From a virus: DNA of 56,587 bases. The position numbers and the translations under genes are program-made. Positions 1,291-56,159 of this stretch are shown here, piece by piece. Every line of letters starts with the position of its first letter. Positions within the stretch are counted from its first letter, which is position 1. The notes below the pieces were generated by a model, which saw only the letters and a program-made list of their open reading frames with translations, made no database searches and was not told where the DNA came from. Location: positions 1 through 56,587 of IMG/VR virus record IMGVR_UViG_3300047198_000034. The stretch is one strand, 5' to 3'.

Positions 1291-1977
1291 TCAAGCGATT
1301 TTTTCAGTCATCTTCTGAGGTTCAGGAACATCCAATGAGTCAGATTCCATCTGAATATATTGACGGTAAGCATTGTCTTCCGATAAATTCTTATCATTTT
1401 GGTCTGCAACAAGAAATTCATCCAACGTACTTAAATGTGTTGCGATTTGCCAAAATTCCTTTACGAGCCTTTTAATCTCTGTCATGATTTCATCATGCCG
1501 TTTATTAAGATATTCTACATATCTTCCGGTAATATCGACGAAGGTTAAATTTTCCGGTATCTCAAAAACTTTATATTTAGGGACTTCGACTAATTCAGTT
1601 TGTATGGCTTTAATCGGCATATTCTTAATTGGTTTTGGTTTCATTTTTCCCAATTCCCTTTTACCCCTACTCTTTATAAGAGCTCGATTCTTCAGTTCTG
1701 CCTTTTCTTCCTCCGTGAGATTCTCATTCCTGATCCGTGCGATCGTTCCCTTAGCTACGCCCGTTTTTTTGACGATCTCCCTCACGGAATGAGTTCTCAA
1801 AAGGGCCTTGACTTTTTCTTCTTTTTCTGGCTTCAGGTAATTTGGCATAGTCTCCTCATCGATGGCTTCCGGCTTTACTTCCCTTCCGCACATGTGGCAT
1901 ACATTCCTTGCTGGGTAAATGGCGTATGCTGGATGGTGTATGATTAATCCTCCGCAGTGTCGGTATGGGCATTTCAA
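1291..1977 (-). CDS. Zinc-finger/HTH DNA-binding protein
   Basis: This is a 228-residue protein. The N-terminus carries a Cys4 zinc site (Cys3, Cys8, Cys27, Cys30). Residues about 62-86 form a resolvase-type helix-turn-helix ('SVREIVKKTGVAKGTIARIR'). The rest is basic and then coiled-coil. The start is TTG 1977, overlapping the methyltransferase stop by four bases (TTGA), so the two genes are translationally coupled. It is likely a phage DNA-binding regulator; its target is unknown. Confidence 0.7.
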   Translation of the reverse strand: MKCPYRHCGGLIIHHPAYAIYPARNVCHMCGREVKPEAIDEETMPNYLKPEKEEKVKALLRTHSVREIVKKTGVAKGTIARIRNENLTEEEKAELKNRALIKSRGKRELGKMKPKPIKNMPIKAIQTELVEVPKYKVFEIPENLTFVDITGRYVEYLNKRHDEIMTEIKRLVKEFWQIATHLSTLDEFLVADQNDKNLSEDNAYRQYIQMESDSLDVPEPQKMTEKIA

Positions 1978-3977
1978 TGGTCACTCCATTTTTCAAAGCA
2001 TAGAACCTCTTCATAATCTATTCTCGGAGCCCCCTTCGACTCAGCCAGTCTTCTAAAGAACGACTTTCTCTCAACGGATATTTCCTCATCCTCTCCGGTG
2101 ATGGTGATTTGTTTTCCAAATGATTTGACCAACATCGCTTTGTGACGACAGACAAGTTTAAATCCTACACTTTCACAAAGGGTTTTCCATCTTCCTGGAA
2201 AATCAACGATGGCCCCTTTTTTACAATATGATTTCGTTACCCAGATCGCATGGCCCCCAGGCTTTAAAAGTTTATAGCATTGTTCAAGGATGATCCGGGA
2301 GGCTGACCAGAAAGTGTCGGGTGGGACATTACCTAAATTGCCTTGATCTCTTTGGGTAGGCCAATAGTTGCGCGGTTCTCCTGAATAATTAGTTAATCCC
2401 TTATACCCATTTCGAGATGATCCACCATCTTGCCGAATATCTGAATATGGTGGGCTACTCACCACGGCATCGAAGGAGCCTTCGGGCATCTTGCCAAGTT
2501 GGCCAAGGGAATCAGGATATCCTGTCCATTTATGAGTCATTTTAATAAGTGCTTTATCACTTCTACCAGGATGAGATTTACGTTGACCTTCTATAAATTT
2601 CTGTCTTTCTTCATCAGTCATCGGCTTATCGGTAGATGTTTCCGCATACGGTGGTGACGAGCATATCAAATCGAAATCCCCTTCTTTTAATGAACCGAGT
2701 TGGCCTTCGGAGGATCCATAATCTTGACTATGAAGTTCTTGAGTTCGACAAAAAGCCTCGAATGAAGCACCACCACCTTGAGATCGGTAGGTTTTATATT
2801 GCTTCTTACGATCAATGGAAGGACTATTCTTTTGGATAGACTGTTCAGCGTAGGGAGGTGATCCCACCACCAGCTCAAACTTCCCCTCTTTGAGATTGGC
2901 AAGAGAAGATTTCCAGATTTTTTTATGAATGATTTGACCTATAACGTTGTGGCTTACCCCATATTCCTTCGCTAAGATTGAATAGCTTGTATTCCCTTTT
3001 GAATATTTTTCTCTAATCTCTGTAACCTGCACTTCCGTTAATTTAGCCCTACCATGATTCTCACCCTTTGCCTGATGAAGATGTTTATTGAAAATTGGAT
3101 TTCTGCCTTTATCAGAAGAGTCCTGCCAATTATCCTGCATTGTTCCGAGGAATAAATGGTCTGGTCTAACGCACCCTGGATTGTCACAATGATGACAAAC
3201 CATTAAGCCTTCAGGAATAGGACCAAAATGGATTTCCCATGAAATACGATGGGCAGAGATTTCTTTTCCATCTATTAAAATCCTTCCATATCCTTTATTC
3301 TGTTTTTTACCTTTCCATTCCCAACAGGCATCCGCCTTTATAACTTTTGCCCAAAATCTATTTTCAAGATCAGAAAGTAAAAAGTGTTCAAAATTACCCT
3401 CCTTCAAATTTGCTAAGTTGCCAGGGGTGTGACCATAGCCGTCCTGCATGGCATCAAGGTTTCTATCGTCCTTCCGGCCACCCTTCCTTGTTGGTGTACC
3501 TCCGTGACCCAATCCTTCATGATATGGTGGACTCGATACCACCAAATCCGCTTGGTTTAGAGTCCCACGCAGCCCCGACTTTGCAATATCAGAGGGTCCC
3601 AAGTTACGGGCATTCCACATCACCTCCCTTAAATTTCTCGAATCCCCCTGCACAATCCTTGCCGTTCCAAGGTTAGGCCAACCCTTGAGTTGACGGTTCC
3701 AGAGGTCGATGTTCTGCTGGCCAAGGGAGACAAACTTTTCCTCAAGTTCAACAGCCAAAAAGTTTAGGCCGTGGCACATGGCATGAAAACCAAAGCCACA
3801 GATTCCGCCAAAGGGATCAAGGACATAATCCCCCCGCTTTACCCATCCCATGTTAATCGCATGGTCGTAAATCTTGCCGGCAAGGGAGAAGGATACCTTG
3901 GCCGGATGACTGAAAGCCTCTGGTACAAGATTCTTACCCCATGGAATTGAATAACAATTTTCCCAAATATCGGTCAT
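1974..3977 (-). CDS. DNA methyltransferase with four SPPY modules and an in-frame HNH insertion
   Basis: This 667-residue protein is a SAM-dependent amino-methyltransferase (N4-cytosine or N6-adenine class). The SAM-binding motif is DPFGGICGFG at residues 54-63, and catalytic SPPY tetrapeptides occur at about 149, 373, 440 and 510. Each SPPY after the first follows a repeated 'LGxLKEGxFD' segment. Between the first and second modules (about residues 198-356) lies a complete HNH homing-endonuclease domain ('VCHHCDNPGCVRPDHLFLGT') with its usual C-terminal HTH ('AKLTEVQVTEIREKYSKGNT'). NLANLKEGNFE before the insert is repeated as SLANLKEGKFE after it. The frame stays open throughout and no intein end residues are visible. 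It probably modifies phage DNA against restriction. Confidence 0.85.
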   Translation of the reverse strand: MTDIWENCYSIPWGKNLVPEAFSHPAKVSFSLAGKIYDHAINMGWVKRGDYVLDPFGGICGFGFHAMCHGLNFLAVELEEKFVSLGQQNIDLWNRQLKGWPNLGTARIVQGDSRNLREVMWNARNLGPSDIAKSGLRGTLNQADLVVSSPPYHEGLGHGGTPTRKGGRKDDRNLDAMQDGYGHTPGNLANLKEGNFEHFLLSDLENRFWAKVIKADACWEWKGKKQNKGYGRILIDGKEISAHRISWEIHFGPIPEGLMVCHHCDNPGCVRPDHLFLGTMQDNWQDSSDKGRNPIFNKHLHQAKGENHGRAKLTEVQVTEIREKYSKGNTSYSILAKEYGVSHNVIGQIIHKKIWKSSLANLKEGKFELVVGSPPYAEQSIQKNSPSIDRKKQYKTYRSQGGGASFEAFCRTQELHSQDYGSSEGQLGSLKEGDFDLICSSPPYAETSTDKPMTDEERQKFIEGQRKSHPGRSDKALIKMTHKWTGYPDSLGQLGKMPEGSFDAVVSSPPYSDIRQDGGSSRNGYKGLTNYSGEPRNYWPTQRDQGNLGNVPPDTFWSASRIILEQCYKLLKPGGHAIWVTKSYCKKGAIVDFPGRWKTLCESVGFKLVCRHKAMLVKSFGKQITITGEDEEISVERKSFFRRLAESKGAPRIDYEEVLCFEKWSDH

Positions 3978-10825: not shown

Positions 10826-11581
10826 TTAAATTAAAAGTCCCTCAAGATTTTCCAAGAGTTGTTTGATTGCCTGTTTCGGAGTATCCTTCCATTGATTTTT
10901 TCTTGCTCTTCTTACGGCTTCATAAAATGCTTCAAAGGTTTTTTTGATTTCATCATTTACCTTTTCGATTGCTAAGGGTTTCGTTTGAATAATTGGTTTT
11001 TTGGGTTTTGGATTTCTGGTTGCTTTAAAAGCCTTATTGACCGACATCTCTCCCTTTCTTACGGCCTGTTTAATCTCTTCCGTAGCCTCCTTCTCAATGA
11101 TCTCTGATTTACGAATTGTATCATGTGAGACACCAGCGATCCTTGCAATCTCTTCACGGGTCTCACCCTCCGCAGATTTCTGCGTAGGGTCGGCCTTACC
11201 TACTTTCATTCTTTTTTCTGCCTTTTCCTCAATAACTGGTTTTAAAAGAAGTGCGAGTCTGGCTCTCTCGTGTGGAGGTAAATTGCGGCGGGCAAGTTGG
11301 TTCTTAATAATCCAAATCTTAGCCTCTTCTTCGCTATCAAATTCCTTCTCCAATATTTTGAATCCAATATTATGCTTGTGGCAGATTTCGTATCGGTTAT
11401 ACCCGTCAATAATGGAACCATTCCATGTGATAATCGCCTCCCGACATCCCTCCTGCAATATGCTCTGTTCAAGCAATTGATATTCGTCAGAAGAAATCGA
11501 TGGAATGATATTATGAAATTCAGGATTGATTTGAAGTTCCATTAACATTTTATTAATCACCTCGTTAGATTTTTCAGTCAT
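10826..11581 (-). CDS. ParB-like DNA-binding protein
   Basis: The 251-residue protein has an N-terminal ParB/Sulfiredoxin-type domain ('IITWNGSIIDGYNRYEICHK'). This is followed by the ParB motif region 'KNQLARRNLPPHERARLALL' and an HTH ('TREEIARIAGVSHDTIRKSE'). The C-terminus is helical. It starts at ATG 11581 in a four-base overlap with the upstream gene. Such phage ParB proteins may act as regulators, partition factors or nucleases. Confidence 0.8.
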   Translation of the reverse strand: MTEKSNEVINKMLMELQINPEFHNIIPSISSDEYQLLEQSILQEGCREAIITWNGSIIDGYNRYEICHKHNIGFKILEKEFDSEEEAKIWIIKNQLARRNLPPHERARLALLLKPVIEEKAEKRMKVGKADPTQKSAEGETREEIARIAGVSHDTIRKSEIIEKEATEEIKQAVRKGEMSVNKAFKATRNPKPKKPIIQTKPLAIEKVNDEIKKTFEAFYEAVRRARKNQWKDTPKQAIKQLLENLEGLLI

Positions 11582-31258: not shown

Positions 31259-31927
31259 TTAGATTGTTTTTGTCTTCAATGCCCTTTCAAGGGCCTTCTG
31301 TTGCTGTTGGGTCTTCATTGCCTTATAAAGGTTATATGTATTTCTATTGACAGCCATCGTCGCCAAATGATCAGCCGGAATAGATGTATCAACAAAGATT
31401 CTATACCCTGCCGCCTTCAAATCCTGGCAGAATCCGATGTCTTCTCCAACGCCTTGTTCATTATCATCCTTTCGGAATTTGAACCACGGAGAGGGCATTT
31501 TTCTGAAAACCTCCATATCGTACATGATGCACCCAGCCCCAGTTGCATCAACCTCTACCAACTCATTCTCTTCCCATTCGTCAATTGGTTCATAACCATT
31601 TCCATTTTTTCTCAACATAATTGAATCAAACGGAGGATAACGCCGAAAACAAAGTGCCCCGACAATGGGAAGTTGGTGAATCAAAAGATTCGTAATTGTT
31701 TTAGGATGATAAATCATATCAGTATCCATCATAATCAGTTTCGTCGCCCCTATAGAGATTGCTTTCTGAACAATATCATTTCGAAGCGTATCGATTGGCC
31801 CATTATCAGCATTGATAAGGGTGAAATCAGGGCGCTCCATATACAGGAAAGAGTAGAGAAAACTCACTGGCACGAAAGGGAAATTGCAAGGAACTCCGAT
31901 TGCGAGATTTAGGTTGCTGATCTTCAT
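31259..31927 (-). CDS. Glycosyltransferase-like protein
   Basis: It has 222 residues from ATG 31927, overlapping the preceding stop (ATGA). A DxD motif occurs in 'LIMMDTDMIYHPKTI', and a later GEDIGFCQDLKAAGY resembles the acceptor-side acidic motif of GT-A enzymes. It probably works with the neighbouring bifunctional enzyme, adding sugar to virion proteins or DNA. The target cannot be read from sequence. Confidence 0.75.
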   Translation of the reverse strand: MKISNLNLAIGVPCNFPFVPVSFLYSFLYMERPDFTLINADNGPIDTLRNDIVQKAISIGATKLIMMDTDMIYHPKTITNLLIHQLPIVGALCFRRYPPFDSIMLRKNGNGYEPIDEWEENELVEVDATGAGCIMYDMEVFRKMPSPWFKFRKDDNEQGVGEDIGFCQDLKAAGYRIFVDTSIPADHLATMAVNRNTYNLYKAMKTQQQQKALERALKTKTI

Positions 31928-33192
31928 TTCACTCCTTTGAATGATATCTGATCCTCCATCGCCGATGTGCAATAGGGATGAGTTTGGGAAACTTTCTCGA
32001 TATCACCGAATCCTGCCTCCGCCATAGTCGCCTTCAGAAGTGATGAACCATAACAATACCGATGATGTGATTTCTGCGTATATGAATAAATGTAAAGATC
32101 ATTCATTTTTTTCATGTTATCTGCCGTCGGATTCGCAAGATAAGTCTTTACCAAATAATCAAAGTCTGGGACTGTAAGCATTATTTTTCCTCCTATCTTT
32201 AGGATAGAATGCCAATGCCTTAATGCCTTCTGTCCCTCCTCAAATGTCAAGTGTTCAAGCAAATGGCCACAATAAATTTCATCCACCGTTCCCGGCTCAT
32301 AGGGGAGATTACGGACATCAGCTATAAGATCGGGATGAATATCTTCAAATTGATCGATATTTATAAATCCAGCAAGAGTATAGGGTCCGCATCCGAGATT
32401 CAGTCGGATTGCACCATTGTGTCTTTTCTCTTCTACCGGACCATTCAGCGGCCCTGTTTGTCTTCCCCAGATATTTGGTCCCCATTTCTTTTCAAGATGC
32501 ATATCATTCCGTCTGCAAACGTGGCCGTATTCAACTTTCCCATCCGTCTCCATTATCTTAAAAGTCTGGCTTCCAATATGATGGACATAGACATCAACGG
32601 CTATCCCGATCTTATAACCGGCTGTTCGTGCACGAAAACAAAAGTCAATCTCTTCCCCGCAACAGGGCCAATGGGTTTCATCAAAAGACCCTATCTCATC
32701 GAATAGGGATTTTCTGAAAGCCATACAGAAGCCAATAACGAAATTAACCTCCCGGGATTCTCCATCATGTTCCTCTGACCATACCGTTGCCACATCAAAT
32801 AATTGTTTATCGGTATTGTAGGTCGGAAGAACGGCCTCCTGTTGAAGTCCGGCACAATAGTTTGCCACAGGCGCAACGATAGAAAAAGTATCAAGATGAT
32901 CCAAAAGGCGTTCGGCCCATTGAGGAGTACAAACAACATCATTATTCAAAAGAACAATTACATCGCCTTTCGCCGCCCGGATGCCTTGATTGACGGCTAC
33001 GGGAAAGCCGAGATTTGTCTCGTTACGGATCAAGGTAGTATCGATAAACCCCGTAAATGGTTTATGAATTGGCGGAAATGAACCGTTATCAATAAGAACC
33101 AACTCATAATCCTGAGTGTTTTCTCGAATTGCCATGATGCATTCCTCAGTCATATCGTGGCAATTAAAAACAGGGATGATAATCGAAATCAT
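31924..33192 (-). CDS. Bifunctional glycosyltransferase family 2 / SAM methyltransferase
   Basis: In the 422-residue protein, residues 1-230 form a GT-A glycosyltransferase ('ISIIIPVFNCHDMTEECI', 'GDVIVLLNNDVVC'). Residues about 255-400 form a class I methyltransferase ('RLNLGCGPYTLAGFINIDQF', 'VDEIYCGHLLEHL'). Fusion of a sugar transferase and a methylase in one polypeptide, inside the tail module and coupled to a second glycosyltransferase, suggests a capping-methylated glycan on the virion. Confidence 0.8.
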   Translation of the reverse strand: MISIIIPVFNCHDMTEECIMAIRENTQDYELVLIDNGSFPPIHKPFTGFIDTTLIRNETNLGFPVAVNQGIRAAKGDVIVLLNNDVVCTPQWAERLLDHLDTFSIVAPVANYCAGLQQEAVLPTYNTDKQLFDVATVWSEEHDGESREVNFVIGFCMAFRKSLFDEIGSFDETHWPCCGEEIDFCFRARTAGYKIGIAVDVYVHHIGSQTFKIMETDGKVEYGHVCRRNDMHLEKKWGPNIWGRQTGPLNGPVEEKRHNGAIRLNLGCGPYTLAGFINIDQFEDIHPDLIADVRNLPYEPGTVDEIYCGHLLEHLTFEEGQKALRHWHSILKIGGKIMLTVPDFDYLVKTYLANPTADNMKKMNDLYIYSYTQKSHHRYCYGSSLLKATMAEAGFGDIEKVSQTHPYCTSAMEDQISFKGVK

Positions 33193-48631: not shown

Positions 48632-48655
48632 TGGCGGTCTAACCACCTACCGCCA
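48632..48655. repeat. Hairpin at the distal end of TIGR array 1
   Basis: TGGCGGT (48632-48638) pairs with ACCGCCA (48649-48655), immediately after the last degenerate repeat. There is no T-run, so it may protect or process the array transcript rather than terminate it. Confidence 0.45.
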
Positions 48656-48657
48656 GG

Positions 48658-48920
48658 GATTTCGCATTGTACCCATGGATTTCAACATTTCAATTGCTCG
48701 CACGAACTCTTTAGATTTCAGATCAACTTTCGCTCGCATATAATTCCTGGGTTTCAGGTCATTCATCGCTCGCATTACCTGGCTGGGTTTCAAGATTTCC
48801 CTCGCTCGCATCCTCTTCCTTGGGTTTCAATAACTGGCTCGCTCGCACACTATCTTTGGATTTCAGCCTCTCCATCGCTCGCATCTTTTTTTTGGATTTC
48901 ACTGGGACCCTCGCTTCACA
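48658..48920 (-). repeat. TIGR-type array 1 (36-bp period, ~14 short spacers)
   Basis: On the plus strand TGG[G/A]TTTCA and TCGCTCGCA alternate, each followed by a 9-base variable segment, giving a 36-bp period; one segment is 10 bases. The reverse strand reads TGAAACCCA and TGCGAGCGA. Terminal repeats are degenerate (GATTTCGCA at the left, TCGCTTCACA at the right). No long frame covers it, so it is not a protein repeat. It follows the 214-residue gene on the minus strand. Confidence 0.88.
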
Positions 48921-48923
48921 TTT

Positions 48924-49568
48924 TTACAATAGAGCAGATCGTTGTATTGTGCTGTTTGGCTTATCGAACATCTTCCTTATGGTGATTGCCACCTGTGCCG
49001 TAATCTTGAGCTTTTCAATCTGCTCATTGAGTTCCTTAACCTTTTTTACGGCGACTTGAAGAGCTTCTTTTGTATGATCATGGGCCAGCTTTTCATTCTC
49101 ATACATACTCTTCCAATCCGTAATTTCCTTTTTAATTTTAGGTATTGGCCAATGCTTCTGGATGATGGCCTCCATCTTAGCTCTGGACAGGGGCATCTTG
49201 TGCGCAATCCCTTCTTGTTGAATCTCTGAAATAACCTTTTCTACTCTCATCCCTCCACATACTCGATCAATCTTTGATACCAAACCGATGCCATACTCAA
49301 GGGCGTATTTGGGGAATTTGGTAAACGCTCTCACATTTTCACGATAGGTTCCTTGGCGAATGGTGAAATTATCCTCAAGATATTCCCAAAAAGAACTCTT
49401 CTTGTATCTTGGATTTTCCTTGAACCGATAAGTTGTTCTTAGATATTCCAAACATTCATACATTTCCTTCTGATTTTCTCTTGATAAGGTGTAAAGTTTC
49501 TTAATCTTGGCTTCCAATTCTGAGATGTTAATTCCATCATATTTATCGTTCTTTTTGATTTCTTCCAT
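48924..49568 (-). CDS. TIGR-locus protein of unknown function (coiled-coil)
   Basis: It has 214 residues from ATG 49568, which has the site AAGGAGGAGATCTCAA. The frame extends 13 codons upstream only because it reads the array's end. The N-terminal half is helical ('MYECLEYLRTTYRFKENPRY', 'SSFWEYLEDNFTIRQGTYRE'). The C-terminal third is a coiled coil ending in NSTIQRSALL. No nuclease motif is seen. It is sandwiched between arrays 2 and 1, with the same A-rich AAAAAAAGGAGG junction as the tas gene, so it may work with the guides or be an inserted regulator. Confidence 0.65.
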   Translation of the reverse strand: MEEIKKNDKYDGINISELEAKIKKLYTLSRENQKEMYECLEYLRTTYRFKENPRYKKSSFWEYLEDNFTIRQGTYRENVRAFTKFPKYALEYGIGLVSKIDRVCGGMRVEKVISEIQQEGIAHKMPLSRAKMEAIIQKHWPIPKIKKEITDWKSMYENEKLAHDHTKEALQVAVKKVKELNEQIEKLKITAQVAITIRKMFDKPNSTIQRSALL

Positions 49569-49590
49569 TTGAGATCTCCTCCTTTTTTTT

Positions 49591-50103
49591 AGATTCGCAT
49601 TGGTCACCTGGGTTTCATGTCTATAATCGCTCGCACCTTTTTCATGGGTTTCAGAATTGGATTCGCTCGCAATGATCCATTAGGTTTCAGCTTTTTGTTC
49701 GCTCGCATTCCTCATCTGAGTTTCGAATCCGTCATCGCTCGTATTTTTGTTTTGGGTTTCAAGCCGTCCCTCGCTCGCACTATTTTTATGGGGTTCAATA
49801 CTTGACTCGCTCGCAATAAACGATTGGGTTCCAAAGACTCCCTCGCTCGCATTACTTCCGTGGATTTCAGAAATGTTATCGCTCGCAGAGTTATTTTGGG
49901 TTTCAACTTCAACATCGCTCGCAGGGGCCTCCTGGGTTTCAAGACGGTAATCGCTCATCCTCTACACTCTGGCCTCAATACTGGGAGAAGGCGCACTCAG
50001 GACTTGGATTTCAACCTCTTCATCGCTCGCACTAATTTGCTGGATTTCAGGGAGGGGGTCGCTCGCATTTGTTAACTGGGTTTCAATCGTTAACTCGCTC
50101 GCA
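49591..50103 (-). repeat. TIGR-type array 2 (36-bp period, ~28 short spacers)
   Basis: This is the longest array. Conserved 9-mers TGGGTTTCA and TCGCTCGCA (plus strand) alternate with unique 9-base spacers in perfect 36-bp phase over about 14 units. A degenerate stretch at 49951-50004 keeps phase (CTGGCCTCA, GAAGGCGCA). The proximal units are read in frame by the tas gene (NASE and ETQ motifs), and a shadow frame of 92 codons crosses the rest; both follow simply from the 36-base period. In minus orientation the conserved segments contain UGA and CGAGCGA, as expected for the sheared G-A pairs of box C/D-like kink turns. Confidence 0.9.
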
Positions 50104-50915
50104 TTCTCCCAATAAAAGGGTTGAATAATGTTCGTATGCCCCATCAAAGCTCCTGTATAAGGTTCTGATACTGTCTTACCCTCAAGAGTCCTTGCAACTG
50201 TCCACCAATGAGCCAGAAATATCTTGACCACTTCATTTTTGGCTGCATTATGAACATGTCCCTTTTCCCATTCAGGATGATTCTTTTGATGCTTCGCCTT
50301 ATGTTGTAAAAGCAGGGCCTTATATGGATGATCATCTTTTTGTCTATTGAATTCCTCACCAATATGAAAACCCACCGTCCGCCCCACCGTTGACCAGTTT
50401 GACAAAGTACCTTTTTTCCGCTTTGGCATAACACCCTCAACTACATGTCTTCCCATATAGGCCCACCATTTTGATATTGTTGGGAAGTCCTTGTACTCCA
50501 ATCGATGCTTCAAAAGACCTTCCTTCGCTGTCTTTCCACAATCAACACATTTTAATTTATGCTCATTCTTTTCCAACTTGCCGCCGCAGTCTTTACAGAC
50601 CGGAATGAATCGATAATAAAACAAAATTATCATTTGGGCTGCAATATAAGGCCCGATTCCTGGTATTTTCTTTGCCCATAATTCCCAAATATCCCATTGC
50701 TTCAACTCCTTTTCAATTTCTCTATTAATCCGACCTTTTACTGTTTCTAATCCTGCCTCTGCCTTTTGTCCCTTTAAAAGCGTATCAAATTTTTCTTCCC
50801 GTTTTTCTCCTGGTAAAGATTGAAGCCTCTGTTTTGTTGATGCAATTAATTGAGTAACCCCTTGATATGTCCTTACCAAAAAATTCAAATATTTTATTCC
50901 CTGTTCGTTTGTCAT
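49962..50915 (-). CDS. Tas protein (Nop/IS110-like guide-RNA-binding protein), no fused nuclease seen
   Basis: The 317-residue protein has an N-terminal coiled coil (about 15-80), then 'KIPGIGPYIAAQMIILFYYR' (83-102), the Gly-rich helix-hairpin-helix found in Nop proteins and IS110 transposases. A zinc ribbon follows (Cys107, 110, 123, 126), then 'FPTISKWWAYMGRHVVEG' and a helical end ('NEVVKIFLAHWWTVARTLEG'). The authentic fold probably ends near residue 269; codons after that are array repeats. No HNH or RuvC motif is visible. Ribosome site AAAGGAGGTGTCGAG. It is proposed to bind 36-nt tigRNAs made from the flanking arrays and target DNA. Confidence 0.8.
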   Translation of the reverse strand: MTNEQGIKYLNFLVRTYQGVTQLIASTKQRLQSLPGEKREEKFDTLLKGQKAEAGLETVKGRINREIEKELKQWDIWELWAKKIPGIGPYIAAQMIILFYYRFIPVCKDCGGKLEKNEHKLKCVDCGKTAKEGLLKHRLEYKDFPTISKWWAYMGRHVVEGVMPKRKKGTLSNWSTVGRTVGFHIGEEFNRQKDDHPYKALLLQHKAKHQKNHPEWEKGHVHNAAKNEVVKIFLAHWWTVARTLEGKTVSEPYTGALMGHTNIIQPFYWENASELTIETQLTNASDPLPEIQQISASDEEVEIQVLSAPSPSIEARV

Positions 50916-50934
50916 CTCGACACCTCCTTTTTTT

Positions 50935-51105
50935 AAATTCGCATCTCTTGCTTGGGTTTCAACCTGACGGTCGCTCGCATAATGTTCCTGGGTTTCAGCA
51001 CGCCCATCGCTCGCATTGTATTTGTGGGTTTCAAAAAGCCGATCGCTCGCATTAGGATATTGGGTTTCAAGCCGATTATCGCTCGCATATTGCTTCTGGA
51101 TTTTA
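50935..51105 (-). repeat. TIGR-type array 3 (36-bp period, 9 short spacers)
   Basis: Same 9+9+9+9 layout as arrays 1 and 2, directly upstream of the tas ribosome site. The terminal repeats are degenerate: AAATTCGCA at the tas side and TGGATTTTA at the other. The junction TGCGAATTTAAAAAAAGGAG (minus) resembles the one before the 214-residue gene. Confidence 0.88.
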
Positions 51106-51285
51106 TTGGCTTTTTAGATTTCTACATATTATCACACTAACCGTTTCATCACCTCCCCACCGCCCGGCATCAAGAATATTAGGATTTTCAGTTTCCAAAA
51201 GAATACGATAGGATTTATCCAAACTCACAAGTGACTTTGCCCGTATTTCCTTAATCACTCCGATAAATTCAATCTTTTCATTCAT
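51103..51285 (-). CDS. Small conserved phage protein
   Basis: It has 60 residues from ATG 51285 behind AAGGAGAAAACGATC. Beta-rich ('IEFIGVIKEIRAKSLVSLDK'). Its stop touches TIGR array 3. Function unknown. Confidence 0.6.
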   Translation of the reverse strand: MNEKIEFIGVIKEIRAKSLVSLDKSYRILLETENPNILDAGRWGGDETVSVIICRNLKSQ

Positions 51286-55610: not shown

Positions 55611-56159
55611 TTAAGATGGCGGCTCAAATCTTTTTTTCAACCCCAAAAAGCATTCTAACTGCCCCTTTAAAATCCAATGCCATCCTTCCCAATTACAGAT
55701 TCGGATCTTTTCCTCATCTGTGGGCAGATTTTTTAGGGTTTCCCAACAAGTATTATTATCCAGGATTCTATTTTTGAATTTCTCAAGGGGTGGCATATCA
55801 GCCCAAAACTTCCTAGAAAATGGAAGAATAAGTGTTGAAATCCACTTAGCGGAAATATCAAATATAAAATTAAAAATATATCCGCCTGCCTCGATAGACT
55901 CGCCTGCCTTGATAGACCCGTCTGCCTTGATAGACCCGCCTGCCTTGATAGACCCGCCTGCCTCGATAGACCAGCCTGCCTCGATAGACCCGCCTGCCTC
56001 GATAGACCCGCCTGCCTCGATAGACCCGTCTGCCTCGATAGACCAGCCTGCGTCTAATAGAATCGATATTTCAAACTTCACCAATGTTTTAAAAAATAAT
56101 ATTTTTTTATCATAATCCTTATATTTCTCTAAATCCTTTATTGTTTTAACTACATCCAT
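55611..56159 (-). CDS. Protein with nine hexapeptide-type repeats
   Basis: The 182-residue protein has N-terminal helix, then nine or so six-residue units [GDE][GEW]SI[EK]A (about residues 36-93), then a globular C-terminus with several Trp ('ICNWEGWHWILKGQLECFLG'). The repeat fits a left-handed beta-helix turn pattern. The flanks are ordinary phage-like sequence. Function unknown. Confidence 0.7.
   Translation of the reverse strand: MDVVKTIKDLEKYKDYDKKILFFKTLVKFEISILLDAGWSIEADGSIEAGGSIEAGGSIEAGWSIEAGGSIKAGGSIKADGSIKAGESIEAGGYIFNFIFDISAKWISTLILPFSRKFWADMPPLEKFKNRILDNNTCWETLKNLPTDEEKIRICNWEGWHWILKGQLECFLGLKKRFEPPS
55880..56054 (-). repeat. 18-bp tandem repeats (nine to ten copies)
   Basis: The plus-strand unit CGCCTGCCTCGATAGACC varies only at a few positions (CTC/CTT, CGC/CAG/CGT). 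Near identity at the DNA level signals recent expansion and likely copy-number variation. Confidence 0.85.

What the first reader, a model, noticed from the sequence alone, without database searches (positions are those of the whole stretch)
48658..51105. TIGR-Tas-type RNA-guided locus in a phage: three 36-bp-period arrays around a Nop/IS110-like protein
Seen: about 51 variable segments of 9 bases alternate with two conserved 9-mers (TGGGTTTCA and TCGCTCGCA on the plus strand) in a near-perfect 36-bp period, in three arrays flanking one protein with an IPGIGP helix-hairpin-helix and a zinc ribbon. Known: TIGR-Tas systems use arrays processed into 36-nt tigRNAs with two short spacers, and Tas proteins with a Nop domain related to IS110; they occur in phages. 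Inference: this is such a system, with a Tas lacking a fused nuclease. CRISPR is excluded by the spacer size.
Basis: partly seen in the sequence, partly recalled or inferred. Interest (0 to 1): 0.97.

Follow-up and report, generated by a model that had tools for sequence, protein, structure and literature searches.

The report
RNA-guided TIGR-TasA locus in a phage
This phage carries an RNA-guided DNA-targeting system of the recently described TIGR-Tas kind, with about 26 two-part guides in three arrays, a nuclease-free guide-binding protein and a second conserved partner protein; it is a real and well-preserved member of a known but poorly understood family, and what it targets is still unknown.

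Summary
On the minus strand, 26 units (52 spacers of 9 nt) alternate with an edge repeat (TGCGAGCGA) and a loop repeat (TGAAACCCA) at 36 bp, in three arrays. The 317-aa protein is a TasA. It matches TasR in the PDB by sequence (E=7.6e-25), and its predicted fold matches TasR (Z 22.4) and TasH (Z 21.7) better than IS110 recombinases (Z about 16). It has no nuclease domain.

Its family lies beside tasA in 37 related loci, mostly with a zinc ribbon inserted in TasA. It is probably the published "TasParB", but my ParB test was inconclusive.

No self-target or relative-target was found above shuffled controls. Spacers turn over far faster than tasA. A few guides nevertheless recur in diverged systems far above chance, and two of three looked up hit phage tail-fibre genes; that is a lead, not proof.

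Verdict: a new member of a known kind. Most likely it binds DNA by RNA guidance without cutting.

The parts
50939..51123 (-). TIGR array 1: 4 clean units plus one degenerate first unit (51123); ends in a 3'-truncated edge (TGCGAATTT) directly before the tasA ribosome-binding site
49962..50915 (-). tasA, 317 aa: coiled coil (about residues 4-80), helix-hairpin-helix IPGIGP, zinc-ribbon insertion (about residues 101-141), Nop C-terminal domain to about 271, then a disordered array-encoded tail
   Evidence: PDB TasR 9mty E=7.6e-25 and TasH E=1e-5; AlphaFold2 mean pLDDT 85.8; fold Z 22.4 TasR, 21.7 TasH, 15.9 ISCro4, 15.6 IS621
50493..50615 (-). zinc-ribbon insertion in TasA (CKDC...CVDC), absent from the corresponding place in TasR
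49965..50102 (-). array-encoded C-terminal tail of TasA (residues 272-317): the ORF stays open through the first units of array 2; pLDDT mostly under 50
49595..50103 (-). TIGR array 2: 14 units, two of them decayed (49995, 49959); ends in a truncated edge (TGCGAATCT) before the ribosome site of the second gene
48924..49568 (-). conserved partner gene, 214 aa, all-helical, with a 50-residue C-terminal helix; probable TasParB of Faure et al. 2025 (ATG after AAGGAGGAG; the listed GTG start at 49607 is upstream)
48662..48919 (-). TIGR array 3: 7 units (first edge decayed, one 10-nt spacer B); ends in a truncated edge (TGCGAAATC)
48632..48655 (-). 7-bp hairpin (TGGCGGT-N10-ACCGCCA) just after array 3; no T-run on this strand, so not a classical terminator
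   Evidence: sequence; scan found no intrinsic terminator

Best explanation
The locus is a phage-borne TIGR-Tas system of the TasA type. Shown here: three dual-repeat arrays, an effector with the TasR/TasH Nop fold but no nuclease, and a conserved operon partner. Inferred from the published system: the arrays are transcribed from the minus strand with tasA and its partner and are cut, with TasA's help, at the edge repeats into about 26 tigRNAs of 36 nt. A TasA dimer holds one tigRNA by its two box C/D-like repeats; spacer A pairs with one DNA strand and spacer B with the other, so a target reads spacerA followed by revcomp(spacerB), with a 0-2 bp gap. With no nuclease, TasA most likely unwinds, bends and blocks the target, silencing genes or replication of competing mobile DNA, and the helical partner acts at or spreads from the bound site. 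The targets are not in the phage's own genome; foreign phages are the most likely ones. The confidence given is for membership and RNA-guided DNA binding (about 0.93); silencing of rival mobile DNA as the role is about 0.5.
For: Sequence match to TasR and TasH. Fold match, with the aligned part starting after the RuvC of TasR. Array anatomy fits the published definition in PMC12045711: dual 9-nt repeats, 9-nt spacers, 36-nt period, arrays up- and downstream of tas, truncated 3' edges. Box C/D-type pairs hold and covary over 51 loci: edge 2-7 51/51 (G-C, G-U, A-U), edge 3-6 51/51 (C-G, U-A), loop 2-7 50/51, loop 3-6 mostly unpaired, in line with the description of TasR. Starting from the repeats alone, 27 of 30 viral contigs with such an array have tasA beside it; two of the other three are cut off beside the array. 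The partner family is beside tasA in 37 loci. Spacers turn over while repeats and TasA persist. No self-targets.
Against: No transcript, 36-nt RNA or DNA binding was measured. The edge ends in CGA, not the CCA of most TIGR arrays, so edge and loop box C differ here. No intrinsic terminator was found after the arrays. No target was identified for any guide of this locus. Silencing of competitors is inferred; an effect on the phage's own replication, partition or integration is not excluded.
Confidence: 0.93

Rival explanations
1. The system works with its helical partner as an RNA-guided partition or condensation device: TasA marks chosen sites and the ParB-like partner loads there and spreads, favouring inheritance of the phage or loss of rivals.
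For: The partner is in the same operon in 37 loci. Its best PDB fold match is the DNA-binding domain of ParB (6sdk, Z 6.5, 97 residues, rmsd 3.3), and it has a long C-terminal helix suited to dimerisation. Faure et al. report ParB-like partners of TasA.
Against: The Z is below the level that means a true relative for helical folds and is tied with ATP synthase chains. No sequence match to ParB. No CTPase domain. No guide targets in its own genome, so it is not a self-partition device by base pairing.
Confidence: 0.25
2. Gene regulation of the phage itself: the tigRNAs direct TasA to the phage's own genes.
For: The locus sits inside the phage genome in an operon; one guide (unit 49707) has a 2-mismatch, 2-bp-gap match inside tasA itself.
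Against: Own-genome matches equal the shuffled pairing: 1 observed at 2 mismatches or fewer against 0.67 expected. Pooled over 570 guides, 3 own-locus matches against 4 shuffled at 2 mismatches.
Confidence: 0.07
3. An IS110-family transposase gene with incidental repeats.
For: PHROGs calls the family a transposase and the fold is related to IS621 (Z 15.6).
Against: No N-terminal DEDD/RuvC catalytic domain; TasR and TasH are clearly closer (Z about 22, E 7.6e-25); dual-repeat arrays accompany the gene in nearly all relatives.
Confidence: 0.01
4. A CRISPR array or a coding tandem repeat.
For: Interspersed repeats with unique spacers; the ORF stays open through part of array 2.
Against: 9-nt spacers, two alternating repeats, no cas-type match for either protein, no PADLOC or Rfam match. 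Spacers unrelated between relatives, and array 3 has stops in the matching frame.
Confidence: 0.01

Closest known systems
TIGR-TasA (Faure et al., Science 2025, PMC12045711)
   Same: Nop-only Tas protein, dual-repeat array with 9-nt spacers and 36-bp period, phage host, truncated 3' edges, arrays on both sides of the gene
   Different: This clade has a zinc-ribbon insertion (the paper's main text does not mention zinc), an edge box C of CGA instead of CCA, and the tasA ORF running into the array
tasA-tasParB operons (same paper, fig. S14 and methods)
   Same: Second gene in the operon, arrays before, between and after the two genes, partner with a long C-terminal helix
   Different: The paper gives 10-nt repeats and ParB/CTPase HHpred matches; here repeats are 9 nt and ParB relationship could not be shown. 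I could not see fig. S14 or the sequences, so identity of the two families is likely but unproven
TasR (PDB 9mty) and TasH (PDB 21kl, 9w04)
   Same: Nop coiled coil and C-terminal domain, Z about 22
   Different: They carry an N-terminal RuvC or HNH nuclease; this protein has none
IS110 family (IS621, ISCro4) recombinases
   Same: Related RNA-binding domain, Z about 16
   Different: No DEDD catalytic domain, no bridge-RNA layout, arrays instead
Microcystis phage Mvi-JY20 (PP438412.1)
   Same: A phage record with a named host and an unannotated TasA-like protein (XAI95461.1) followed by a 36-bp TIGR array and an intrinsic terminator
   Different: 29% identical over 121 residues; no zinc ribbon; no partner of this kind seen

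Membership tests
TIGR-Tas | Nop-domain protein of the Tas family | tested here: met
   PDB TasR E=7.6e-25, TasH E=1e-5; fold Z 22.4 and 21.7
TIGR-Tas | Array of two alternating 8-12-nt repeats with about 9-nt spacers, 36-nt unit | tested here: met
   26 units
TIGR-Tas | Box D (UG) and box C (CCA) with pairing in both repeats and an extra pair in the edge | tested here: met
   Pairs hold and covary over 51 loci; the window's edge has CGA in place of CCA but keeps the paired bases
TIGR-Tas | Arrays end in a 3'-truncated edge followed by an intrinsic terminator | tested here: inconclusive
   Truncated edges at all three ends; no T-tailed terminator found
TIGR-Tas | Processing into 36-nt tigRNAs bound by Tas | not testable with these tools
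   Needs small-RNA sequencing
TIGR-Tas | Tandem-spacer targeting of both DNA strands | not testable with these tools
   No target known for this locus
TasA subtype | No N-terminal HNH or RuvC nuclease | tested here: met
   Model residue 1 aligns to TasR residue 107
TasA-TasParB operon | Operon partner homologous to ParB | tested here: inconclusive
   Best fold match ParB DNA-binding domain Z 6.5, tied with unrelated chains; no sequence match
IS110 transposase | N-terminal DEDD/RuvC catalytic domain | tested here: not met
   Protein begins at the coiled coil
CRISPR-Cas | Single repeat of 25-36 nt with similar-sized spacers, cas genes | tested here: not met
   9-nt spacers and two repeats; no PADLOC match for either protein

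The most novel reading that the evidence does not exclude
Zinc-ribbon TasA with its dedicated helical partner is a distinct two-protein, RNA-guided, non-cutting weapon of phages against phages, whose guides are selected to match conserved coding motifs of rival phages' tail-fibre genes. Evidence not excluding it: guides recur in diverged TIGR systems (5 pairs within 2 of 18 mismatches where TasA is 65% identical or less, about 0.004 expected under equal base composition), and two of three such guides looked up match tail-fibre-like genes 18/18. Those recurring guides come from relatives, not from the window itself.
Probability: 0.15. Interest if true: 0.85.

Novelty: new member of a known kind. 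Interest (0 to 1): 0.5.

Why it matters
TIGR-Tas was described in 2025 with its natural targets, biological role, array growth and the role of nuclease-free TasA all unknown. This window gives an intact TasA operon with an unusually rich array set (26 guides), and its relatives define a coherent clade: zinc-ribbon TasA plus a helical partner. The comparison gives usable facts on the open questions. Guides do not target the own genome. Spacers are replaced much faster than the protein diverges. Some guides are nevertheless kept or regained across diverged systems, which is a way to find real targets. A sequenced phage with a named host (Microcystis phage Mvi-JY20) carries such a system unannotated, so the biology could be tested in a native host.

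Tried and rejected
1) Self-targets and targets in relatives: spacerA+N0-2+revcomp(spacerB) and two other layouts, 570 guides against 0.98 Mb, arrays masked; real pairs equal shuffled pairs at every mismatch level; window alone also at chance.

2) Tail-fibre targets as a proven answer: rejected. I first took synonymous-looking differences between recurring guides as proof (note), but with six frames and few changes that is not significant, the number of IMG/VR hits per guide is mostly near the chance rate, and a third guide gave no common context. Kept only as a lead.

3) Exact matches of five recurring guides and four Mvi-JY20 guides in 50,697 phage records: none. A positive control in the same format was found, so the search can see exact 18-mers, though with E near the limit.

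4) B-to-A spacer sharing in L033 was a parser artefact, because its edge and loop differ at only 2 positions.

5) ParB relationship of the partner by profile comparison: nothing, though the ParB profile used was very thin. A supposed ParB neighbour of tasA in five loci turned out to be mainly a different family, which I recognise from memory as DUF5131-like.

6) Foldseek for the partner: no match at E<=0.001.

7) Rfam: no match. Plasmids: no TasA.

8) A first request to fetch whole contigs of relatives failed on a size limit and was not repeated, so the self-target test on relatives covers only the fetched stretches.

Full report
WHAT WAS CLAIMED AND WHAT IS THERE. The finding describes three arrays with a 36-bp period around one Nop/IS110-like protein. 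Read on the minus strand, the units are edge TGCGAGCGA, spacer A, loop TGAAACCCA, spacer B, each 9 nt. Array 1 (51123-50939) has five units, array 2 (50103-49595) fourteen, array 3 (48919-48662) seven; four units are decayed. The edge occurs 20 times exactly in the region and nowhere else in the window; the repeat blocks carry about 14 bits each, the spacer blocks about 2.

OPERON. Gene order in the direction of transcription is array 1, tasA (50915-49962), array 2, a second gene (49568-48924), array 3. Each array ends in a truncated edge (TGCGAATTT, TGCGAATCT, TGCGAAATC). In the first two cases the truncated edge runs straight into a strong ribosome-binding site of the next gene (sequence). 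The tasA frame stays open into array 2 and adds about 46 mostly disordered residues; relatives differ in this, so I regard it as incidental overlap.

THE EFFECTOR. phmmer against the PDB finds TasR 9mty (E=7.6e-25) and TasH 21kl (E=1e-5). A model built on 42 relatives has mean pLDDT 85.8. It matches TasR at Z 22.4 (204 residues, rmsd 2.7) and TasH at Z 21.7, then ISCro4 and IS621 at about 16, and archaeal Nop proteins at 6-7. Model residue 1 corresponds to TasR residue 107, so the RuvC domain is absent: this is a TasA. A four-cysteine zinc ribbon (residues 101-141) is inserted where TasR has only a few residues.

THE SECOND PROTEIN. The 214-aa product is helical with mean pLDDT 90.8 and ends in a 50-residue helix. 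Its family was found next to tasA in 37 loci. Over the 78 TasA-bearing rows (some are near-duplicates), 29 have zinc ribbon and partner, 34 neither, 8 partner only (two of these have a truncated tasA), 7 zinc ribbon only. This is largely one clade, so the counts are not independent events. Faure et al. describe a ParB-like gene, tasParB, in tasA operons with arrays before, after and sometimes between the genes. The anatomy here fits that. My own ParB test is inconclusive: best fold match ParB DNA-binding domain, Z 6.5, no sequence match.

MEMBERSHIP FROM THE ARRAY SIDE. Scanning 2.9 million viral contigs for loop-N9-edge-N9-loop gave 30 contigs; 27 have tasA beside the array. Two of the other three are cut off beside the array, and one (L162) has an array between two genes with no tasA in 14.7 kb. 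With the window's own exact edge and loop, five of six contigs already carried tasA; the sixth has a single unit and no tasA, and may be a chance match. Edge and loop keep box C/D-type pairs by covariation over 51 loci, in line with the description of TasR tigRNAs.

SPACERS AND TARGETS. From the published cleavage geometry I derived that a target reads spacer A followed by the reverse complement of spacer B, with a gap of 0-2. Tested over 570 guides and 0.98 Mb of mostly TIGR-carrying phage DNA, real pairs are no better than shuffled ones. The window's own genome gives 1 match at 2 mismatches against 0.67 expected. So these systems do not mainly target themselves or these relatives. Spacers turn over quickly: the window shares none with L003 or L089 (76% identical TasA), and a pair with 95% identical TasA shares 3 of 10 units.

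A LEAD. Five guide pairs recur within 2 of 18 mismatches between loci whose TasA is 65% identical or less, where about 0.004 are expected under equal base composition (AT-rich sequence raises that figure somewhat). Three such guides were looked up in IMG/VR. One matched, 18/18, three tail-fibre-like genes at NGNTQLWYLG, and its variants matched two other structural-type genes with the same motif. One matched two collagen-type tail-fibre-like genes at FPDMSVQST. The third had no common context. Homologues of the first fibre are annotated as tail fibre proteins in two phage records. The hit numbers are close to chance for most guides, so I keep this as a lead only. Nine guides had no exact match among 50,697 phage genomes, with a working positive control.

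VERDICT. This is a new member of TIGR-TasA, probably of the tasParB group. Binding without cutting is the most likely mode of action. The phage is a tailed one with terminase, portal, protease, major head, distal tail and tape-measure genes. Its nearest TasA relative in the genome collection lies in a contig binned to Candidatus Methanoperedens, others in Desulfobacterota, so the host is uncertain.

Noticed in passing
L170 (PP438412.1, Microcystis phage Mvi-JY20), locus 2659-3750: A sequenced cyanophage carries an unannotated TasA-like protein (XAI95461.1, 'hypothetical protein') followed by a TIGR array (ATGCGAGCC / ACGAAACCC, 8 units) and an intrinsic terminator: a possible native model system.
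   Followed up: partly
L162 (IMGVR_UViG_3300031553_000102), about 3020-3310: A TIGR array of about 8 units lies between two genes of the head region with no tasA anywhere in the 14.7-kb contig: an array separate from its effector, or an orphan.
   Followed up: partly
L065, L067, L072, L075, L077 arrays; L053 and L091: A few guides recur, with 0-3 mismatches in 18, between TIGR arrays whose other spacers are all different; this could be used to find natural targets.
   Followed up: partly
window 55882-56051: A 9.4-copy 18-bp tandem repeat (CCGCCTGCCTCGATAGAC, 92% match) overlapping the minus-strand ORF 55611-56159, probably a six-residue coding repeat.
   Followed up: no
window 10826-11581, minus strand: A ParB-like protein (PHROG ParB-like partition protein, E=2.4e-11) elsewhere in the same phage, with no detectable sequence relation to the tasA partner.
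   Followed up: partly
window 1974-3977, minus strand: A 667-aa ORF combining DNA-methyltransferase matches at both ends with an HNH endonuclease match in the middle, as if a homing-type HNH were inserted in a methyltransferase gene.
   Followed up: no
window 31924-33192, minus strand: A predicted glycosyltransferase plus methyltransferase ORF within the tail and head gene region.
   Followed up: no
L061-L079 loci: A second large TasA clade has repeats beginning AG or GAG (for example GAGCGAGCCA / GAGAAACCCA, effectively 10 nt) and no partner of the window's kind.
   Followed up: partly
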